NCBI GenBank assembly: GCA_021108275.1
Contig: JAIORD010000028.1
Location: 124,001 to 188,000 of the forward strand
DNA from: Methanococcoides sp.
GTDB taxonomy: Archaea; Halobacteriota; Methanosarcinia; Methanosarcinales; Methanosarcinaceae
DNA length: 64,000 bases
Direction of reading: 5' to 3'
Positions within the stretch are counted from its first letter, which is position 1. Each line of letters starts with the position of its first letter. Under the pieces are notes generated by a model. It was not told the origin of the DNA, did not search any database, and saw only the letters and a list, made by a program, of their open reading frames with translations. The translations under genes and the position numbers were made by a program. Below are positions 5,669 to 49,095 of this stretch, piece by piece.

Positions 5669-8262
5669 ATGGAGTTGATCGCATCAGTGCCAAAAAAACG
5701 AATGTAGGCGGTGCAAAAGTATCTACTATTGATGCGGCATCCCGGGAAGAGGTTTTCAAATCTGTTATAAATTCCAGCCCTGCGATTGTCTTTTTATGGA
5801 GGGTGGAAGTGGGCTGGCCTGTGGATTTCGTTTCCGAGAACATCTCGCAATTCGGGTATGATGCAAAAGATCTGATCTCCGGAAAGTTTCGTTATGTTGA
5901 TATTATCCATCCCGATGATGTTGATCATGTAATATCTGAAACGTCTCTTCATATGGATGATAAAGACCGCAATTTCAACCTCCGATATCGTATTCTAACA
6001 AAGGCCGGGGATATTCGATGGGTCGATGAAAGGACGTCCGCTCATTGTGATGATTCCGGTTCTATCCAGTTCTATCATGGTATCGTTCTGGATATTACTG
6101 AGCAAAGGATGGACGATATTGCTTTGCTTGATGGTGCTCTTGGTATGAACAAAGCGCTTCAGACCGTTATCAATTCCAGTCCGGTAGTTGTATTTCTATG
6201 GAAGGCAGAGAAGGATTGGCCCGTGGAGTTCGTATCGAAGAACATTCATATGTTCGGTTATTCGGTGGAGGATTTCATCTCGGGAAAATTGGTCTATGGT
6301 GATATTGTACATCCTGATGATATTGGCCGTGTTCGTGAAGGTGTTTCCAAGTGTACTGAGGGTGGATATTCTGATTTCTTCCAGGAGTATCGTATCCTCA
6401 CAAAGACTGGAGAAGTGCGCTGGGTCGATGAAAGGACTCAGATACAACACGATCCACTGGGCAATGTGACCTATCTCCAGGGTATCATTCTTGATATCAC
6501 TGGGAGGAAGAAGATAGAGAATGCACTTCATAGTGAAGAAAAACGTATTGAAGCGCTGTTACGTTTGTACCAGATGACGGATGCTTCCATTCAGGATATT
6601 ATTGATTTTGCCAGGGATGAGGTCGTAAGACTGACTAATAGCAAGATCGGATATCTGGCATTCATGAGCGATGATGAAAGTGTCATCACTACTGATTCAT
6701 GGTCTGAGGGTGTTACGAATGAATGTTCTCTGAACAAAAAGAAACTTCAGTCACATGTGGTCGATGTTGGGTTATGGTTTGAATCTCTGAAACAGAGGTT
6801 GCCGATCATAGTAAATGATTATTCAGAAGAGAATCCTTCTAAAAGGGGATATCCTGAAGGGCATATGAAGATCGATCGGTTTTTGAGCGTTCCTATATTT
6901 GAAAGGGACAAGATCGTTGCTCTTGTAGGGCTTGCCAATAAGACTGATAATTATGATCTTTCCGATGTGCGTCAGGTCACACTTCTGATGCAGGGTATGT
7001 GGAGTATTCTCCTTCATAGGGGGGTGGATGAGGAGCTACGCCGTTCTCTTGACATACAGAAGATCCTGGGGGATGTCATTAAGAATAGTCCTGCGGTTGT
7101 CTTCCTTTGGCGCGCTGACCCTGATTGGCCGGTCGAGTTCGTTTCAGAAAATGTGACCCAGTTTGGTTATTCGGTGGATGATTTTATTTCGGGAAGGTTT
7201 GTGTATGCTGATATTGTCCATCCTTATGATCTTGATAGGGTGCAAAAGGAGCTTTCTAAGAGGATAGATGCAGGCTTTATGGATTTTAATCAGGAATATC
7301 GGGTATTGACCAAGTTCGGCGATATACGATGGGTGGATGAAAGAACGTTCATCAAGCACGATGAGGATGGTAATGTGGCTTATATGCAGGGTCTCATTGT
7401 GGATGTTACTGACCGTAAACATTCTGATGATTTTATGCATATGCAATTTGATCTTGATAGTGTTCTAAGTTCTGCGCATAGTCTTGAGGAAACCTTTGAA
7501 CAGATGCTTGAATTCAGCTTAAAGGTCGAGCCGGTGGATTCTGGAAGATTGTATCTTTTTGATGAAGCAACTGGGGATCTGAGGCTTGTGGCGCATAAAG
7601 GTCTTTCAGAGCGTTTTGTGAAGGAAACTTCGGTGTTTGGAAAGAATTCTGTGCAGAACCGTCTTGTGATGACCGGGCAACCGGTTTACAAACATCATTC
7701 GGAGCTTAGTGCCATTACTACTGGTGAGAGCTCCCAGTACGAGGGTTTGCATGCTACCGGTATAATCCCTGTGATACATGATGGGAAGGTCATTGCAGCG
7801 CTTTGCTTATCCTCGCATTCCGAATATGAGATCCCTGCCGATGCACGTAATTCCCTTGAGACCATTGCTACCCAGATCGGAGTGGTCATTTCAAAGATCC
7901 GCTCGGATTCAAATGATTCTAAGAAGTACAATGACCTTCAGTCCCTTGTTGATATGGTGGATGAGATTCTGGTGGTATTGGACATGGATGGGTATGTCCT
8001 CTATTCAAATAAGATGCTTGTAGAAGGTCTGAAACTTTCTGATGAAGATATTTCAGATATGCATTACCTTGAGCTTCATCCTGATGGGGAATGGGATAAT
8101 GTTGATTCTATGCTTTCGAGTGCCCGGGTTGGGGAAAAATTAGTATATGAAACTGTCATGCTGGGTGCGGGTGGTTTTCTGGTCGGGGTCGAAACAAAGC
8201 TTGTCTGTGGTGAATGGTCGGGACAGCCTTGTATTATGGCTTCATCAAGACTTATTGACTGA
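5669..8262 (+). CDS. Multi-PAS/GAF sensor protein without kinase domain, start region out of frame
   Basis: The continuous frame encodes PAS, PAS, GAF, PAS, GAF and a final PAS, but no HisKA or ATPase domain, so it can sense but not phosphorylate by itself. Three PAS units share the pattern SSPAxVFLW...WPVEFVSxNI...FGY and end in VDERT...DIT. The PAS frame is open back to about 5650 with no ATG, GTG or TTG before the first PAS. ATG 5669 and GTG 5687 lie one frame off and would join the PAS frame by a -1 shift at the A7 run 5692-5698. ATG 5803 is in frame but would cut off the first PAS core. Possible explanations are a lost A, a sequencing error, programmed slippage or a non-standard start. 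It is likely cytosolic, since no membrane segment is seen. Confidence 0.75.
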
Positions 8263-8280
8263 TTGGTTTATGGACTGATG

Positions 8281-8316
8281 GATCGGGTTATATTTTCTGT
8301 CCGATTCTTTTATTTT
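8281..8316 (+). terminator. Hairpin plus T-rich tract after sensor gene
   Basis: ATCGG (8282-8286) pairs with CCGAT (8301-8305), followed by TCTTTTATTTT. The stem is short, but its position just after the stop fits a terminator. Confidence 0.45.
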
Positions 8317-8407
8317 AGGACTCGATAAATAGTCTTTATATATGATTATGTAGATAATTGCTTTAAATATTAGATACGATAATGCATCGATTTTTTGGAG
8401 AGTATAA

Positions 8408-9253
8408 ATGAATACAAAATATATAGCCATTTTTTTGGCGGTTATAATGGTCATGTCAATCATGCCTTTTTTCTTCAGTGGAAGCTCGAATGGGGAGACT
8501 GCGGATAATTCGGTTGTGGATGCCGTTGGCTTTGAATCTATTCCTGGTGAACATGTGAATCACGAACTGAACTCCCTTGCTGATGGTCTGGCAGTGACAC
8601 CTGAAGGGGTAGTATTTGCAGAATACGTTGATATTGACAGCATAAAGGATACACCACTTTACCTTATGATGGGTAATACATCACAGTTGGATTCAGTATA
8701 TGGAGTTTCGGTCACTAAGTTGTACTCTGCAGAATATGCTAACCAGCACAGTTTCAATATGCATGAGATAAACCCTGAGGTAATTGCTTTCCCTTATTAT
8801 CTTTCAGAGGAAACGTATAATGGATACTATTTCGCTTCACGTGGTAGCGACCTGTATAATGTAATAGGCAATCCTATGCTCTTTGGTCAGCAGGATCGAT
8901 TGGAGGATGTTCTGGATGTCATGGAAGGCAGTGCTAATGCATCATCTGATTTTAGCAGGGTGATGGAGTTCGTGGAGCCGGGTGCACCTATACAGCAAGT
9001 TATGGTCGTGAATGACGGTTTTGCAGATCAGTATTATCTTGATCTGATGTTCCTTGATGATTCACGTTTGTCCCGTACTACTGTCTATCTTAATCCGACG
9101 GATGGTACTCGCAACAATATAACTGCTTATGCAGCTGAAGGTCTTGATAAGGGTCTGGACTATGATATAGAGTCTCAGGGAGATATTTTGAAGGTGACCG
9201 TTACCTTAGATTCTTCAGATTTCTATACTTTCATGGGTGAACCTGCTTGGTGA
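8408..9253 (+). CDS. Secreted or membrane-anchored protein of unknown function
   Basis: A 281-residue protein I do not recognise. It starts with a hydrophobic segment (YIAIFLAVIMVMSIMPFFFSG, residues about 5-25) that acts as signal peptide or anchor, and the rest is acidic and soluble, so it is exported. There are no Cys residues, repeats or known motifs that I can name. The start ATG has TTGGAGAG about 7 bases upstream, a good ribosome binding site. It stands alone between two T-rich terminators. Its stop codon is inside the stem of the downstream terminator hairpin. Confidence 0.75.
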   Translation: MNTKYIAIFLAVIMVMSIMPFFFSGSSNGETADNSVVDAVGFESIPGEHVNHELNSLADGLAVTPEGVVFAEYVDIDSIKDTPLYLMMGNTSQLDSVYGVSVTKLYSAEYANQHSFNMHEINPEVIAFPYYLSEETYNGYYFASRGSDLYNVIGNPMLFGQQDRLEDVLDVMEGSANASSDFSRVMEFVEPGAPIQQVMVVNDGFADQYYLDLMFLDDSRLSRTTVYLNPTDGTRNNITAYAAEGLDKGLDYDIESQGDILKVTVTLDSSDFYTFMGEPAW

Positions 9254-9839: not shown

Positions 9840-10070
<231 letters not shown>

Positions 10071-10075
10071 TGATA

Positions 10076-10264
10076 ATGGAACAGAGAAAATGTTCATTTT
10101 GCGGAGAGTTGCTTGAGCCAGGTACAGGTCTCCTTTTTGCAAAGAGGGACGGATCCACATATTATTTCTGTTCTTCTAAGTGTAAGGGCAACTTCGATCT
10201 TGGAAGACTTCCAAGGCGTACTGTCTGGACAGAACAGGGTAGGATCTACCTTAAGAAAGCATAA
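10076..10264 (+). CDS. rpl24e: 50S ribosomal protein L24e
   Basis: A zinc-ribbon ribosomal protein of 62 residues. Four Cys ligands are visible in [14 protein letters not shown] and [15 protein letters not shown]. Three possible starts exist (GTG 10067, ATG 10070, ATG 10076); ATG 10076 is preferred because the protein family begins with MEQRKCSFC-like sequence and GGTGAT sits just upstream. It overlaps or abuts S28e and is followed closely by Ndk. Confidence 0.96.
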
Positions 10265-10278
10265 TGTGGGTGAATCTG

Positions 10279-10728
10279 ATGGAAAGAACCTATGTTATGG
10301 TCAAACCAGATGGCGTTCAGCGCTGTCTTGTTGGAGATATCGTTTCAAGAATCGAGACAAAAGGTCTTAAGATCGCAGCATTAAGGATGAATGTGATGAC
10401 CGAAGCGGCTGCAAAGGAGCACTACAAAGAGCACTCCGAGAGGCCTTTCTTCGGTTCACTCATATCCTTTGTAACTTCAGGACCATCCGTTTCGATGGTC
10501 ATTGAAGGCAATAACGCGATCAAGATCATGCGTGCGATCAATGGTGCAACAAATCCTATCGATGCATTGCCCGGAACTATCCGTGGCGATCTTGCAGTTG
10601 ATATGGGTCGAAATGTTGTCCATGCATCCGATGCTCCGGAATCAGCAGAGCGTGAGATAGCTCTTCACTTTGAAGAGTCTGAGATCTCCGGCTATCCACG
10701 AGCAGATGATGAATGGTTGTATGAGTGA
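10279..10728 (+). CDS. ndk: Nucleoside diphosphate kinase
   Basis: A 149-residue enzyme that transfers the gamma phosphate from ATP to other NDPs through a phospho-histidine. The family start [15 protein letters not shown], the catalytic segment [18 protein letters not shown] (His in the NxxHASD motif) and the C-terminal W are all present. The frame is open to 10264, but ATG 10279 is chosen because the family begins there and GGTGA precedes it. It ends the L7Ae operon. A large structured terminator follows. Confidence 0.97.
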
Positions 10729-43121: not shown

Positions 43122-43248
43122 TTGGAATTCCCCTTAAATTAGATCATTATTTTCAAAATTTTGTTCTTGCTAGTTATTACTTTTGTACAGATAGCAATTA
43201 ATTTTATTATCTAATTTTTAGTTTGGTCACAATCTTTATGCTCCAACA

Positions 43249-43359
43249 ATGTTCGCACCCGAAGGAGAAGTGCCTGTAACAGTAATGAGCATTTTAAGTT
43301 TGAGTTTCTATATAATATTCGCAGCCTTGGCTTGGTGGAGCGAGAAAAAGAAAAAATGA
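43249..43359 (+). CDS. Possible 36-residue single-pass membrane protein
   Basis: A short frame reads MFAPEGEVPV and continues with TVMSILSLSFYIIFAALAWW, then a tail SEKKKK. The pattern of a short outside part, one hydrophobic helix with aromatic end and a Lys tail is that of small accessory subunits of transporters. No clear ribosome binding site lies upstream, and the neighbours are not transporters, so the call is tentative. Confidence 0.4.
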   Translation: MFAPEGEVPVTVMSILSLSFYIIFAALAWWSEKKKK

Positions 43360-43410: not shown

Positions 43411-44052
43411 TCAGAGAATTCCAAGCAGCTTTGAGACCTTTAGAGCTATGTTTGCCATAAAGAAGGTAATGTTATTAACGACCCCCACAGGCTCTATGAC
43501 AATATCAGCAGCGTCATAAGCATCTAAGAATGTATCCGCAGGCTGTTTAGATTCCATTATACTTCTGATCGTATCTTCATTTGATATTACCACGACTGTC
43601 GGATCTATTTCAGAACTCAGGCCTACTACAGATTGTAGTATTATCCTTGCATCCAGGGATGTGACAGCTCCACTATCATCAACATCGACATTTGCGTCTT
43701 CTTCCATCTTCCCGGTAGACATCTTCAGTGCACACAGGGAATCCACAGCACTTAGATAACCATCTCCATTGCAGTCACCCTTTTCAGCTTCAATCTTGAT
43801 TCCCACTTTATGGAATTCTACAACCGTGGCATCCTTTGTAACCACTTTTAGTTCTAGTGCACTTCCATCATTTAGCTCTATAATACCATAGATCTCTTCA
43901 TTTCCAAGAAGACTATTTACAAGACTCGGGACTTTATCTACATTCTGATTATATGCCACGACCCTCTGATTCATATCGTCAAATAGGTCTGCTGATGCTG
44001 GGTTTACCAAAAATATAAAAAGTAGAAATGAGATAATGATGATCTTCTTCAT
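43411..44052 (-). CDS. Secreted dockerin-domain protein
   Basis: A 213-residue exported protein with a signal peptide (IIIISFLLFIFLVNPASA). A type I-like dockerin lies at about residues 95-145: two EF-hand-like repeats, DCNGDGYLSAVDSLCALKMSTGK and NVDVDDSGAVTSLDARIILQ. It has no cohesin. The N-terminal region (LFDDMNQRVVAYNQNVDKVPSLVNSLL) and C-terminal region are unknown. It would bind cohesins of the proteins encoded upstream. It is the last gene of the four-gene operon, 12 bases after the cohesin-anchor gene. Confidence 0.85.
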   Translation of the reverse strand: MKKIIIISFLLFIFLVNPASADLFDDMNQRVVAYNQNVDKVPSLVNSLLGNEEIYGIIELNDGSALELKVVTKDATVVEFHKVGIKIEAEKGDCNGDGYLSAVDSLCALKMSTGKMEEDANVDVDDSGAVTSLDARIILQSVVGLSSEIDPTVVVISNEDTIRSIMESKQPADTFLDAYDAADIVIEPVGVVNNITFFMANIALKVSKLLGIL

Positions 44053-44064
44053 TTCTACACCCCC

Positions 44065-44607
44065 TTACCTTCTTCTCTTGACAACGAACAGAGCCATGAC
44101 GATTGCTGCCATTGTCATCAACAACATGCTTCCATAACCTGCACTTTCTGAAGCTTTCTCGGTAACACTGAGGGTTCCGTCAATGGTGGGAGAAATAACT
44201 TCAACAAGATCAGTATTGTGAACTGATACATCACTCAGGGTCAGGGTACTGGATGAGCCGACCGCACCGAGCACCTTAAATGATACGACTGCGACCGCAC
44301 CATCACCAGTTATGCCGGAAGAGTCTGCCAGTGCAATTATGACCTCTCCTTCATTACCTGTATTGGACTCGAGATATGCATTTCCACCAAGTTCACCGGC
44401 CTCTACGCCCACAGCCTGTAGAACTGCTGGATCATACATCAGGGAAATATCCATACTTCCCACATCTGTAGCTCCTTCAAGGTTGATAGGAACCTCCACT
44501 ATACCCCCGGATGCACCTGTTGTGTCGCTCAGACTAACGGTCAGACCCTGTGCCGATGCAAGAGATACAAGACACAACAAACTAACTAACAATAACATTC
44601 TTTTCAT
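44065..44607 (-). CDS. Membrane-anchored cohesin-domain protein
   Basis: A 180-residue protein. After the signal peptide (LLLVSLLCLVSLASAQ) comes one cohesin domain: LTVSLSDTTGASGGIVEVPINLEGATDVGSMDISLMYDPAVLQAVGV, GEVIIALADSSGITGDGAVAVVSFKV. The C-terminus is a single membrane helix followed by KRRR, so the cohesin would be displayed on the cell surface. ATG 44607 has GGGAGTGAT upstream; the longer frame to 44643 only overlaps the previous gene end. It lies within the cohesin/dockerin operon and could tether dockerin proteins to the cell. Confidence 0.88.
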   Translation of the reverse strand: MKRMLLLVSLLCLVSLASAQGLTVSLSDTTGASGGIVEVPINLEGATDVGSMDISLMYDPAVLQAVGVEAGELGGNAYLESNTGNEGEVIIALADSSGITGDGAVAVVSFKVLGAVGSSSTLTLSDVSVHNTDLVEVISPTIDGTLSVTEKASESAGYGSMLLMTMAAIVMALFVVKRRR

Positions 44608-44642
44608 GACATCACTCCCTATTTTCATTATTACTATTTCCA

Positions 44643-46625
44643 TTATTTACTTTCTACGACTATTTTCAAAATCAGCCTGGCATCAATTGATGTAACACTC
44701 CCGTCTTCGTTCACATCCATGGACGGATGTTCCGGTATCTTTCCAACAGCCATCTGAAGCGCATAAAGAGCATCAAGGGCTGTAAGTTCACCACCATCAC
44801 CGGCAGCGTCCCCTTTACTACCCCCCAGGCTTATGACTGTAAATATTCCATTTCTGACAGGAATCGTGATTGTTGCCATGTCCTCTGCCATATTTGCAGA
44901 CAGGAACACAATATCCAAGGGAGAAGATGAACCTTCAGACCCAATCACATCGAATTTGACGTAAGCGATCGAACCATCACCACCGAATCCATCTTGGTCA
45001 GCAAGACTTATCTTAATCGTCCCATCGATAATATTGTAATCGAAAAGAGAATCACCTGCTAAACTTCCTTTTATCACCTCATTGGCATCTAGTACAGAGG
45101 AATCATATTGCAGTTCAATATCCATATTTCCGATATTTTCCTTTATTCCATTCAATGTTAAAGGAATCTGTACGCTGCTATCAACCGGTTTGCTGCGGGA
45201 CTCGAATACCAAGCCTGAAACTGCTGCAAAACCACGTGCTGTTCCAAACGGAGAACGCGCCCACCACATATCATGCAAATCAAGGTCGAAAGATTCAGGG
45301 TCAGAAGGAACACCACTTAGTTCACAAATAGTTCTTTCTCCGGCACTAACAGAGACAGTTTTCTTGAGATCGTTGTCTGAAACCCCAACCACACCATTAA
45401 AGATATAGAAGATGGAGGTTCCATCATCCCCCACATGCACCTCAAACATTGTGCCTTTGACACTTCCTTTTGCTGAAGGGGTGGTAACCTCGAAAGGCGG
45501 GTCAACAACATTACTCAAAATGTCACCCTTTTCAAGGGAGATGGACCTGCTATCAGAGTCAACCTGCACACTTGTTCCAGGACTAAGCATTACATTTGAC
45601 CCATCAGTATATTTTATGATGGCATTTCCTGGTGAGGAGATTTTGGATGTCCCTATACGATCCTTGTCAGATATCTTCGACAAATCTCCTTCAACCACTT
45701 CATTTTCATTTACCGTCACTTTCCCGGATTTTACCCCTAGGGATGTCTCAGAAACTTCTTCATCAACAGTAAAATAAATATAATCCTCAGCAACTCCCCC
45801 CCTGCCATCATAGACCTTTACTATAAGCTGATAAAGAGCATTCCCGATTACGGGTTTACTGCGTGACCAACTCTGGTCTGGTGGCAAATCTAAATATATC
45901 TTCAGGTTACGGTCATACCACTTATAGGTCAATTTATCGCCATCTTTATCCTCTGCTTCGGCAACAACAGTGACGACATCACCAGGTTTTGGATCCTTGG
46001 GGAAATATGTAAGTGTAATAGTCGGCGGACGGTTTATCGGAGATTTCTGAGCTCCTATTACACCTGCTGCACATCTTTCCATTTGATAGAAAAGGTCCAA
46101 TGCCTCCTGTTTATCTAGAGAATCGGTATTAATTACTACCACATAATTAGATTGATAAAGGAATCCAGAGACAGTAAAAACTCGTTCACCGTCTGAAAGA
46201 ATCCTATTAGTCATATATACGAATCTACCTGGACTGTTCTGGACTAATGTTTTATCAGGATACTTTATAGCGAAATCCTTTGTGGTTAATGCCTTCTCCC
46301 AGTAACCAGTTTCATCATCAAACTTTTTTGCTGCGTTTCCAGGAATATTAAAAGCAAATAGCATAAACGCTGCATATGGCCTGAAAGCTTTCCCTCTCGT
46401 GTAACTGCATGAAAGCAGACTGTAATCGGGATAGGAATATGAGTCACCAGAAGATAATTGCATCCCCAACCCAGGACACTCAGGACATTTTACGGATTTT
46501 ATTAAAGAGGGATCTAGAGGCGGCATATCTTCTGGAGATTCAGCGGGTTCATCTGGTTCCCCCGAAACAATCCCGGCTGATGCAATGAGGAATATGAGTA
46601 AGATAATTCCTCGAATAGTCAACAT
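44643..46625 (-). CDS. Secreted FecR, cohesin and dockerin protein
   Basis: A 660-residue exported protein. Order: signal peptide, an unknown domain (residues about 45-195, with Cys in KCPECPG), an Ig/PKD-like unit (RPPTITLTYFPKDPKPGDVVTV), a FecR domain (about 300-430, GNAIIKYTDGSNVMLSPGTSVQV and PFEVTTPSAKGSVKGTMFEVH), a cohesin (about 470-600) and a C-terminal dockerin with two repeats (GELTALDALYALQMAVGKIP and DGSVTSIDARLILK). Cohesin and dockerin closely resemble those of the 812-residue neighbour. Carrying both on one chain would allow chains to link to each other. Confidence 0.9.
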   Translation of the reverse strand: MLTIRGIILLIFLIASAGIVSGEPDEPAESPEDMPPLDPSLIKSVKCPECPGLGMQLSSGDSYSYPDYSLLSCSYTRGKAFRPYAAFMLFAFNIPGNAAKKFDDETGYWEKALTTKDFAIKYPDKTLVQNSPGRFVYMTNRILSDGERVFTVSGFLYQSNYVVVINTDSLDKQEALDLFYQMERCAAGVIGAQKSPINRPPTITLTYFPKDPKPGDVVTVVAEAEDKDGDKLTYKWYDRNLKIYLDLPPDQSWSRSKPVIGNALYQLIVKVYDGRGGVAEDYIYFTVDEEVSETSLGVKSGKVTVNENEVVEGDLSKISDKDRIGTSKISSPGNAIIKYTDGSNVMLSPGTSVQVDSDSRSISLEKGDILSNVVDPPFEVTTPSAKGSVKGTMFEVHVGDDGTSIFYIFNGVVGVSDNDLKKTVSVSAGERTICELSGVPSDPESFDLDLHDMWWARSPFGTARGFAAVSGLVFESRSKPVDSSVQIPLTLNGIKENIGNMDIELQYDSSVLDANEVIKGSLAGDSLFDYNIIDGTIKISLADQDGFGGDGSIAYVKFDVIGSEGSSSPLDIVFLSANMAEDMATITIPVRNGIFTVISLGGSKGDAAGDGGELTALDALYALQMAVGKIPEHPSMDVNEDGSVTSIDARLILKIVVESK

Positions 46626-46656
46626 TCTGCATTACCTCCCAAAGAAGTAACCATCT

Positions 46657-49095
46657 TCATTCCTCTAACCTGGCAGACATTTTCAGTATCTGCCTTGCAT
46701 CAATTGATGTTACACTTCCATCTCCATTCACATCCATAGCCAGATCTTCCGGTATCTTTCCCACAGCCATCTGGAGTGCATACAGGGCATCCAGAGCTGT
46801 AAGTTCACCACCGTCACCTTCAGCATCTCCTTTGCTTTCCTCCAGACTGATCACCTTGAATACTCCGTCCTTTGCAGGAATTTTGACGGGTGACAGATCT
46901 GCCCTGTTCGCAGACAGAGATACAATATCAAGAGCGGTGGATGAGCCTTCAGCTCCGACCACATCGAATCTTACGTGAGCAACAGAGCCATCACCGGAGA
47001 ATCCGTCCTTATCAGCGAAACTGATCTTGATCGTACCGTCAATGATATTGTAATCGAACAGTGAATCGCTTGATAAACTACCTTTAACAACTTCAGTAGC
47101 TACAAGGACAGAAGAATCATATCTCAGGGTCATATCCATATTTCCGAGATTCTCCCGTACTCCATACAATGTCAGAGGGATCTGGACACTGCTTCCGGTT
47201 GCCTTGCTACGGGATTCAAAGGTCAGGCCATTGAACCTGTCAATTACAGGTTCCGGAGAAGAGGGTGGTGTAGGACTCGGAACCGTTGATCCCTGACGAA
47301 TGGAGTTGATCTCACTTTGTGAAAGAGCAACATTATAGATCCTCACCTCATCAATGATGCCTGAGATATAGCCTCCATAAGACGGATTGGAAGCAATATT
47401 GGTATAATCCCAGCCTTTACTCAGTTTGCCTTTTTCTTGATACACCTTATCATTTACGTACAGTGTCACAGTTTCAGCATCCTGGTCATAAACCGCTGCC
47501 AGGAAAGTCCATTCCCCGGTTGTGACAGGATGGAATCCTAAAACACCACCCGAACCACTAAAGGCAGACCAGCCAGCTCCCCCGCCACGAGTGTCGAAAC
47601 CTATCGTACGATCAAAACCACCATTATCATGTGAAATGATGGTTCTCGCAACATCTGCCTGAGCCCAGGCAACCATGGTCAGTTGTGGCATATTATCCGG
47701 ATTAATGTTAACCGGTGACCGCACGTAATCATTCGTTCCGTCAAAGCTCAATGCCTGATTCCTTACTCCGGATACAAAGACTGCACCATTGTTGGTTCCA
47801 TGGTTATTGTTGCCTGAATAATCTCTTACATCACCATCAAAAGGATAGTAGGCAACAAGACCCCTCTCAGAAATGGGTGTTGGGGTTGGAGTAGGTGTTG
47901 GACCTGGAACTGTTGCTCCCTGACGAATGGAGTTGATCTCGCTTTGTGAAAGAGCAACATTATAGATCCTCACCTCATCAATGATGCCTGAGAAATAGCC
48001 TCCATAAGAAGGATTGGAAGCAATATTGGTATAATCCCAGCCGTTACTCAGTTTGCCTTTTTCTTCATATACCTTATCATTTACGTAGAGTTTCACAGTT
48101 TCAGTATCCTGGTCATAAACCGCTGCCAGGAAAGTCCATTCTCCGGTTGTGACAGGAGAGAATCCTAAAACAGCCCCTGTACCACTAAAGGCAGACCAAC
48201 CAGCTCCCCCGCCACGAGTGTCGAAACCTATCGTACGATCATAACCCCCGTTATCATGTGAAATAACGGTTCTCGATTCAGCATCAGACTGAACCCAGGC
48301 AACCATGGTCAGTTGTGGCATATTATCCGGATTGATGTTAACAGGTGAACGAACGTAATCATTCGTTCCATCAAAGCTCAGTGCCTGATTCCTAACTCCG
48401 GATACAAAGACTGCACCATTGTTGGTTCCATGGTTATTGTTGCCGGAATAATCTCTTGTATCACCATCAAAAGGATAGTAGGCAACAAGACCCCTCTCAG
48501 AAATAGGTGTTGGGCTCGGAGTAGGAGTTGGACCTGGAGTTGGGCTCACCGGCGATGGATCCATCAGACCAAAGAAAAAGATGGTCACATGATCCTCGCC
48601 TTCAAGAGAACCAATCATTCCCATATTTTCCACCCTGATGGTGTGGATACCTCTATCCAGGCCGGATATCTCCAAATACTTGACAAATGCACCACCTGGA
48701 TAGGCGCCATCACTTCCGTAAGTATTTCCGGTCCATACCTCTGTGCCATCAACAAGAACACGTGCCCAGCCATCGTTGGTGTCACCCCAGAACTGGACAC
48801 CTACTGTGGTCGTTTCAACGGTCGTCTTTGCTTCGACCCAGTTACCCTGATCCAACAACGCGATCCACTGATTATATCGCCAGATCGAACCGCTAGTTGT
48901 GATCTGGAACTCGGATGGAGGTGTAACATATGCCGTATTGGCAAAGGCTACGACATCTGGTGGAGCTGCTGAATCAAGAGCATTTCCATCATACAATACA
49001 GCGTTCACTTCTGCAGATGCAACTGTCATAGACAATGACAAAACTGCTAAAGAAATGAAAAGAACATACAATAACCTCTTTGTGGTATTTTTCAT
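46657..49095 (-). CDS. Secreted protein with two LamG domains, cohesin and dockerin
   Basis: An 812-residue exported protein. Order: signal peptide, a beta-sandwich (30-180), a Pro/Thr linker, LamG/concanavalin domain 1 (about 205-395, GLVAYYPFDGDTRDYSGNNNHG), a second Pro/Thr linker, LamG domain 2 (about 412-603, nearly identical), a third linker, a cohesin (about 620-750) and a dockerin (about 757-812, ALDALYALQMAVGKIP and GDGSVTSIDARQILK). LamG domains often bind sugars. It is the first gene of the operon. The LamG copies lie 627 bases apart in the DNA and are very alike, which suggests recent duplication. Confidence 0.9.
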   Translation of the reverse strand: MKNTTKRLLYVLFISLAVLSLSMTVASAEVNAVLYDGNALDSAAPPDVVAFANTAYVTPPSEFQITTSGSIWRYNQWIALLDQGNWVEAKTTVETTTVGVQFWGDTNDGWARVLVDGTEVWTGNTYGSDGAYPGGAFVKYLEISGLDRGIHTIRVENMGMIGSLEGEDHVTIFFFGLMDPSPVSPTPGPTPTPSPTPISERGLVAYYPFDGDTRDYSGNNNHGTNNGAVFVSGVRNQALSFDGTNDYVRSPVNINPDNMPQLTMVAWVQSDAESRTVISHDNGGYDRTIGFDTRGGGAGWSAFSGTGAVLGFSPVTTGEWTFLAAVYDQDTETVKLYVNDKVYEEKGKLSNGWDYTNIASNPSYGGYFSGIIDEVRIYNVALSQSEINSIRQGATVPGPTPTPTPTPISERGLVAYYPFDGDVRDYSGNNNHGTNNGAVFVSGVRNQALSFDGTNDYVRSPVNINPDNMPQLTMVAWAQADVARTIISHDNGGFDRTIGFDTRGGGAGWSAFSGSGGVLGFHPVTTGEWTFLAAVYDQDAETVTLYVNDKVYQEKGKLSKGWDYTNIASNPSYGGYISGIIDEVRIYNVALSQSEINSIRQGSTVPSPTPPSSPEPVIDRFNGLTFESRSKATGSSVQIPLTLYGVRENLGNMDMTLRYDSSVLVATEVVKGSLSSDSLFDYNIIDGTIKISFADKDGFSGDGSVAHVRFDVVGAEGSSTALDIVSLSANRADLSPVKIPAKDGVFKVISLEESKGDAEGDGGELTALDALYALQMAVGKIPEDLAMDVNGDGSVTSIDARQILKMSARLEE
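47294..48520 (-). repeat. Tandem duplication of the LamG unit (627-base period)
   Basis: The stretch beginning TGACGAATGGAGTTGATCTC at 47294 recurs at 47921, and the two units stay nearly identical at DNA level over most of 600 bases. Copies differ at scattered positions, mostly third bases. Confidence 0.85.

What the first reader, a model, noticed from the sequence alone, without database searches (positions are those of the whole stretch)
43411..49095. Archaeal cohesin/dockerin operon encoding a possible cell-surface scaffold
Four consecutive genes encode LamG2-cohesin-dockerin, FecR-cohesin-dockerin, membrane-anchored cohesin and dockerin-only proteins. Two chains carry both partners, so they could chain together, and the anchored cohesin could fix the end to the membrane. 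Cohesins and dockerins are known outside cellulosomes, including some archaea, but a compact self-contained set in a methanogen is striking; no enzymes are present, so it may serve adhesion or envelope structure.
Basis: partly seen in the sequence, partly recalled or inferred. Interest (0 to 1): 0.82.

Follow-up and report, generated by a model that had tools for sequence, protein, structure and literature searches.

The report
Archaeal cohesin–dockerin surface-assembly cassette
A methane-producing archaeon carries a compact, repeatedly conserved set of secreted proteins that can plug into one another and into a membrane-anchored socket; relatives of the parts are known from Archaeoglobus, but the conserved three-part kit, and a plug spliced into the middle of another domain, appear undescribed.

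Summary
In detail: four contiguous minus-strand genes at 43411-49095 encode LamG2-Coh-Doc, FecR-Coh-Doc, a membrane-anchored cohesin and a dockerin protein. The genus is Methanococcoides.

One label is wrong. The 'dockerin-only' protein is a small secreted domain, widespread without a dockerin in Methanosarcinaceae, with a dockerin inserted in its middle.

The set is a conserved cassette. X-Coh-Doc (1-3 copies), then membrane cohesin, then dockerin-bearing cap, recurs in this order in about 20 loci from Methanosarcinaceae to Archaeoglobaceae. The same genome has a second copy. In Archaeoglobaceae the cap has the same domain, but its dockerin sits at the N-terminus.

Archaeoglobus fulgidus AF2375/AF2376 is the two-gene version. 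Its membrane-type cohesin is published to bind the dockerin of its X-Coh-Doc, which supports anchored chaining by homology.

Most likely mechanism: a membrane-anchored cohesin tethers secreted bivalent Coh-Doc linkers that display variable lectin-like, FecR or beta-propeller domains, and monovalent cap proteins fill cohesin sites. Which cohesin the cap binds, and what the structure does, are unproven.

Verdict: new variant of a known kind (non-cellulosomal archaeal cohesin-dockerin), moderately interesting.

The parts
46657..49095 (-). Gene 1: LamG2-Coh-Doc, 812 aa: signal peptide, N-terminal jelly-roll-like module, two LamG modules, cohesin, dockerin
47920..48504 (-). LamG module 1 (aa 198-392)
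   Evidence: Laminin_G_3 E=3.7e-32 over two stretches; 92% identical to module 2
47293..47874 (-). LamG module 2 (aa 408-601), recent tandem duplicate
46843..47232 (-). Cohesin (CohX class) of gene 1
   Evidence: PF00963 E=9.8e-15
46663..46836 (-). Dockerin (DocX class) of gene 1; Ca loop 1 degenerate (13 residues), loop 2 canonical
44643..46625 (-). Gene 2: FecR-Coh-Doc, 660 aa (unassigned N-terminal domain, Ig/PKD-like stretch, FecR, cohesin, dockerin)
45411..45626 (-). FecR domain (aa 334-405)
   Evidence: PF04773 E=7e-9
44826..45218 (-). Cohesin (CohX class) of gene 2
   Evidence: PF00963 E=1.7e-13; best PDB match 2XDH E=1.2e-16; Foldseek 2XDH E=1.5e-14, TMt 0.86
44646..44819 (-). Dockerin (DocX class) of gene 2; Ca loop 1 degenerate, loop 2 canonical
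44065..44643 (-). Gene 3: membrane-anchored cohesin (CohTM), 192 aa as called, probably 180 aa starting near 44607
   Evidence: PF00963 E=2.5e-18; homologue lengths
44158..44559 (-). Cohesin domain of gene 3
44071..44145 (-). C-terminal hydrophobic helix followed by RRR (membrane anchor)
   Evidence: hydropathy; PGF-CTERM-like tail in the A. fulgidus homologue
43411..44052 (-). Gene 4: cap protein, 213 aa: small secreted domain interrupted by a dockerin
43795..43992 (-). N-terminal half of the host domain
   Evidence: aligns with dockerin-free paralogues
43615..43788 (-). Inserted dockerin with two canonical Ca loops
   Evidence: PF00404 E=2.4e-4
43414..43614 (-). C-terminal half of the host domain

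Best explanation
A four-gene member of a conserved archaeal cohesin-dockerin surface-assembly cassette. Gene 3 is a socket (cohesin) fixed in the cytoplasmic membrane. Genes 1 and 2 are secreted bivalent linkers: the C-terminal dockerin plugs into the anchored cohesin or into the cohesin of another linker, while their own cohesin stays free, so that short membrane-tethered chains display lectin-like (LamG), FecR or, in paralogues, beta-propeller domains. Gene 4 is a monovalent dockerin protein that fills a cohesin and so ends or caps the assembly, or occupies the anchor, displaying its own small domain (possibly SCP2-like). Shown here: gene content, order, conservation and domain architecture. 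Supported by published binding in the homologous A. fulgidus operon: anchored-type cohesin with linker dockerin. Inferred: chaining, capping, the cap's partner, and a role in surface adhesion or glycan/envelope binding.
For: Order X-Coh-Doc -> CohTM -> cap is invariant: 11 of 11 dockerin-bearing caps that were found by their host domain alone sit directly downstream of a CohTM; the same order in Archaeoglobaceae and in G206. Second copy in the same genome. Number of linkers varies 1-3 while one anchor and one cap are kept (two anchors in METP1). Only CohTM has a C-terminal membrane segment. A. fulgidus AF2375/AF2376 = L120 (contig of 2,178,400 bp; domain boundaries as in PMC9705933) and AfuCoh76 binds AfuDoc75. 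Window CohX is closest to the AF2375 cohesin crystal structure 2XDH by sequence and by fold. Coh-Doc tandem is predicted as two modules with a low-confidence linker (pLDDT 83, residues 140-148 under 50, pTM 0.66), so nothing speaks for self-closure. Distance-matrix partial correlations link CohTM with the cap dockerin (0.47-0.51), more than with the cap's host domain (0.20-0.31), and do not link CohX with the cap dockerin.
Against: No complex was modelled and no binding was measured for these proteins. First Ca loop of both linker dockerins is degenerate. Recognition residues of the two dockerin classes are similar, so partner specificity is unresolved; coevolution values rest on 12-17 loci and are confounded by gene linkage. 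The cassette is patchy (strong X-Coh-Doc hits in 3 of 11 Methanococcoides genomes), so any role is accessory. No expression data.
Confidence: 0.6

Rival explanations
1. Defined 1:1:1 complex rather than chains: DocX occupies CohTM, and the cap dockerin occupies CohX; no polymer forms.
For: The minimal cassette is one linker, one anchor, one cap (L017, L054, L058, L062). CohX and CohTM differ at a dockerin-facing position (N versus S before M-D).
Against: CohX shows no co-variation with the cap dockerin; several loci have 2-3 linkers; A. fulgidus has no cap.
Confidence: 0.2
2. CohTM is a docking hub for alternative secreted passengers: linkers and cap compete for the same anchor, and CohX is a minor or self-binding site. 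The role is display of interchangeable sensor or lectin heads rather than scaffold building.
For: Cap dockerin co-varies with CohTM; AF2376 cohesin binds the AF2375 dockerin; X regions vary widely (LamG, FecR, PD40, FG-GAP, none).
Against: CohX is present in all 40 chains classified as linkers (partly by definition of the class) and its sequence is well conserved, which argues that it is used.
Confidence: 0.3
3. Vestigial or ordinary secreted modular proteins with degenerate, non-functional cohesin and dockerin modules.
For: Linker dockerins have one degenerate calcium loop and fall below Pfam's cut-off; patchy distribution.
Against: Strict conservation of order and modules across distant families; intact second loops; fully canonical cap dockerin; measured binding in A. 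fulgidus.
Confidence: 0.08

Closest known systems
Archaeoglobus fulgidus AF2375/AF2376 non-cellulosomal cohesin-dockerin proteins (PDB 2XDH)
   Same: Same gene order and classes: X-Coh-Doc followed by a membrane-type cohesin; nearest solved cohesin
   Different: A. fulgidus has a PD40-propeller X domain, one linker and no cap gene; the window has two linkers with LamG and FecR heads and a dockerin-interrupted cap
ANME cohesin/dockerin proteins (Chadwick et al. 2022, PMC9012536; PMC5244752)
   Same: Archaeal, secreted, non-cellulolytic, some scaffold-like; the ANME-1 contig L071 carries an X-Coh-Doc + CohTM pair of this very type
   Different: ANME systems described there have many proteins and scaffoldins with up to five cohesins; the passages found do not describe this three-part cassette or the interrupted cap
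Clostridial cellulosome (type I cohesin-dockerin, e.g. 1OHZ)
   Same: Cohesin fold and paired-loop dockerin; anchor / adaptor / dockerin-bearing parts as a logic
   Different: No enzymes, no cellulose-binding module, no multi-cohesin scaffoldin; anchor is a single transmembrane helix
SCP2 / Alkyl_sulf_C superfamily
   Same: Cap host domain gives a weak colinear profile match above reversed and unrelated controls
   Different: Probability only 4-20%; not detected by Pfam or PDB profile searches

Membership tests
Non-cellulosomal archaeal cohesin-dockerin system (AF2375/AF2376 type) | X-Coh-Doc gene directly followed by a single-cohesin, C-terminally anchored gene | tested here: met
Non-cellulosomal archaeal cohesin-dockerin system (AF2375/AF2376 type) | Cohesin homologous to 2XDH | tested here: met
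   phmmer E=1.2e-16; Foldseek TMt 0.86
Non-cellulosomal archaeal cohesin-dockerin system (AF2375/AF2376 type) | Cohesin and dockerin of the set bind each other | not testable with these tools
   shown for AfuCoh76-AfuDoc75 only (PMC9705933)
Cellulosome | Dockerin-bearing carbohydrate-active enzymes | tested here: not met
   no enzyme domain in the four proteins at E<=1 apart from weak cross-hits to LamG
Cellulosome | Scaffoldin with several cohesins | tested here: not met
   one cohesin per protein
Type I dockerin | Two 12-residue calcium loops with D1, N/D3, D/N/S5, D12, each followed by a helix | tested here: inconclusive
   cap: both met; linkers: loop 2 met, loop 1 degenerate; two helices predicted
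SCP2-like domain (cap host) | Significant profile or fold match to SCP2 | tested here: inconclusive
   hhalign score 24.5 (P 20%) versus controls <=17; the structure model failed (pLDDT 41.5)

The most novel reading that the evidence does not exclude
A phylum-wide archaeal plug-and-socket surface assembly kit of fixed logic (one membrane socket, interchangeable plug-and-socket linkers, one plug-only cap), in which the plug was joined to the same small, possibly lipid-binding domain in two different ways: inserted in its middle in Methanosarcinales, N-terminal in Archaeoglobaceae. Chain length or anchor occupancy would be set by competition between linker and cap.
Probability: 0.35. Interest if true: 0.75.

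Novelty: new variant of a known kind. Interest (0 to 1): 0.55.

Why it matters
It turns the long-standing oddity of cohesins and dockerins in a non-cellulolytic archaeon (A. fulgidus) into a conserved, compact, enzyme-free kit with defined parts that can be expressed and tested as a 3 x 3 binding matrix. If the chain-and-cap logic holds, it would be a simple non-covalent way for methanogens and their relatives to build changeable surface displays, and a source of orthogonal archaeal Coh-Doc pairs.

Tried and rejected
Structure of the cap (AF2, 5 sequences) failed: pLDDT 41.5, not used for fold search. Profile search of the host domain against PDB and Pfam found nothing credible. SCP2 identity tested by hhalign: suggestive only; an earlier run with wrong settings and mis-cut sequences was discarded. 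Toxin_R_bind_N hit on the LamG protein (E 2.7e-7) rejected as a cross-hit of the lectin fold (Laminin_G_3 E 3.7e-32). First genome-contig scan found no relatives (patterns from the signal peptide). Genomic neighbours of dockerin-free host paralogues (next to DNA polymerase II large subunit and carboxylase genes) gave no functional hint. Flanks of the cassettes differ between genomes, so neighbours do not inform function. The two dockerins of contig C33 were set aside as likely contamination (transposase, GC 47-49% against about 42%). Papers on the A. fulgidus cohesins by Voronov-Goldman 2011 and the review by Peer 2009 are not held; from memory (not checked) both A. fulgidus cohesins bind its single dockerin. 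The complex could not be predicted: no multi-chain folding and no coordinates here.

Full report
OBSERVATION. Four ORFs lie head to tail on the minus strand at exactly the coordinates given. Pfam finds cohesins in three (E 2.5e-18, 1.7e-13, 9.8e-15), two Laminin_G_3 stretches, one FecR domain and dockerins slightly below Pfam's cut-off; the dockerins are firmly supported by profiles built from the paralogous sets. All four have an N-terminal signal-like segment, and only the 192-aa cohesin has a C-terminal hydrophobic helix followed by RRR. The window lies in a 2.67-Mb genome in 60 contigs. So the organism is a Methanococcoides.

THE FOURTH GENE IS NOT DOCKERIN-ONLY. A search of 185 genomes of the order with the 213-aa protein and its C17 paralogue gave two kinds of match: full-length matches in 11 places, and many 150-170-aa proteins matching positions 1-84 and 147-213 with nothing between. 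Alignment shows the dockerin sitting in the middle of that small secreted domain. In Archaeoglobaceae the corresponding protein has signal peptide, dockerin, then the same domain uninterrupted. The domain has no Pfam or NCBIfam family. A profile comparison with SCP2 domains scores above reversed and unrelated controls (24.5 against at most 17; positive control SCP2 versus Alkyl_sulf_C 33.6), but the probability is only 20%, so SCP2-like is a lead, not a finding.

CONSERVED CASSETTE. The same genome holds a second set on contig C17 in the same order: beta-propeller-like X-Coh-Doc (596 aa; the propeller is read by eye, Pfam calls none), CohTM (183 aa), cap (213 aa; 57% identical to the window's). 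Of the 11 dockerin-bearing caps found by host domain alone, all 11 lie directly downstream of a CohTM, itself downstream of one to three X-Coh-Doc genes. One exception in arrangement only: METP1 has two CohTM genes. The order also holds in G206 (another family of the phylum) and in several Archaeoglobaceae. An ANME-1 (Methanophagales) contig has X-Coh-Doc plus CohTM without a cap; its X region contains a stretch that by eye resembles FecR, though Pfam did not call it. Flanking genes differ between genomes, X-Coh-Doc of this type is strong in only 13 of 185 genomes of the order and 3 of 11 of the genus, and ANME-1/G206 sequences nest among Methanosarcinaceae in the tree. In G090, a Methanococcoides without a match to the X-Coh-Doc profile (76% complete), the flanks are about 1.0 kb apart instead of 6.3 kb. 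So it is an accessory, probably transferred cassette.

KNOWN RELATIVE. The phylum search led to a genome of one 2,178,400-base contig (L120), which by length and by the published domain boundaries is A. fulgidus: a 506-aa PD40-Coh-Doc protein and a 190-aa CohTM. These are AF2375 and AF2376, whose modules AfuCoh76 (anchored type) and AfuDoc75 (linker dockerin) bind strongly and specifically (PMC9705933). The AF2375 cohesin matches the crystal structure 2XDH, which is the best match of the window's CohX by sequence (E=1.2e-16) and of its model by fold. This is the strongest support for anchored docking, but by homology only.

CALCIUM AND SPECIFICITY. The cap dockerin has two canonical loops. The window's linker dockerins have a canonical second loop and a first loop one residue too long without the position-3 Asn/Asp; this variant occurs in a minority of linkers. 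Recognition positions before the loop's last Asp read A-L / S-I in linkers and A-V / S-L in the cap, i.e. the same general code (sequence; positions recalled from cellulosome dockerins). The two cohesin classes keep the M-D pair of strand 3, with N before it in CohX and S in CohTM. Distance-matrix partial correlations favour CohTM with cap dockerin and CohX with its own DocX, and show none for CohX with cap dockerin; this is weak, since linked genes share history.

MECHANISM. Shown: parts, order, anchoring segment, conservation. By homology: linker dockerin binds anchored cohesin. Inferred: linker-linker chaining, capping, display of variable heads (LamG, FecR, jelly-roll, in relatives PD40 or FG-GAP propellers). 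The Coh-Doc tandem is predicted as a well-folded cohesin plus a dockerin joined by a low-confidence stretch that includes the degenerate loop. Function as adhesion or envelope structure is plausible from the lectin-like heads but untested.

NOVELTY. Archaeal non-cellulosomal cohesins and dockerins are known (A. fulgidus; ANME, PMC9012536, PMC5244752). I found no description of the three-gene cassette or of a dockerin inserted inside another domain (open-licence papers only). Hence: new variant of a known kind.

Noticed in passing
L019:3035-7219 (contig C10 of the same genome): A 1394-aa disaggregatase-type beta-helix protein (PF06848, PF08480) with PKD, CBM9, cohesin and dockerin, followed by a truncated near-identical copy at 7395-9134 and a fragment at 10058-10333.
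   Followed up: partly
L022:2351-7574 (contig C4): A second, different cohesin/dockerin set: beta-helix-PKD-CBM9-dockerin (1002 aa), a small Coh-Doc adaptor (219 aa) and a cohesin protein ending in a hydrophobic segment (345 aa), with a different dockerin recognition pair (IL instead of AL).
   Followed up: partly
L020:4554-5672 (contig C3, next to a proline-tRNA ligase gene): Secreted protein of a cohesin and a CAP (cysteine-rich secretory protein) domain.
   Followed up: no
L023:1-9000 (contig C33): Short contig with two dockerin proteins, a REP-type transposase and higher GC (47-49%); probably a bacterial contaminant of the assembly.
   Followed up: partly
43235-43351 in the window versus L164:1797-2462: The window keeps only the last ~117 bp of a membrane-protein gene that is longer in G090 and intact in G097 (L054:8950-9579), right beside the cassette.
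   Followed up: partly
L071:153-3126 (Methanophagales, ANME-1): X-Coh-Doc plus membrane cohesin of the methanogen type in an ANME-1 contig, nested among Methanosarcinaceae sequences: probable transfer.
   Followed up: partly
48504-47293, minus strand: The two LamG modules are 92% identical with Pro/Thr-rich linkers: a recent internal duplication; G097 also carries two copies.
   Followed up: yes
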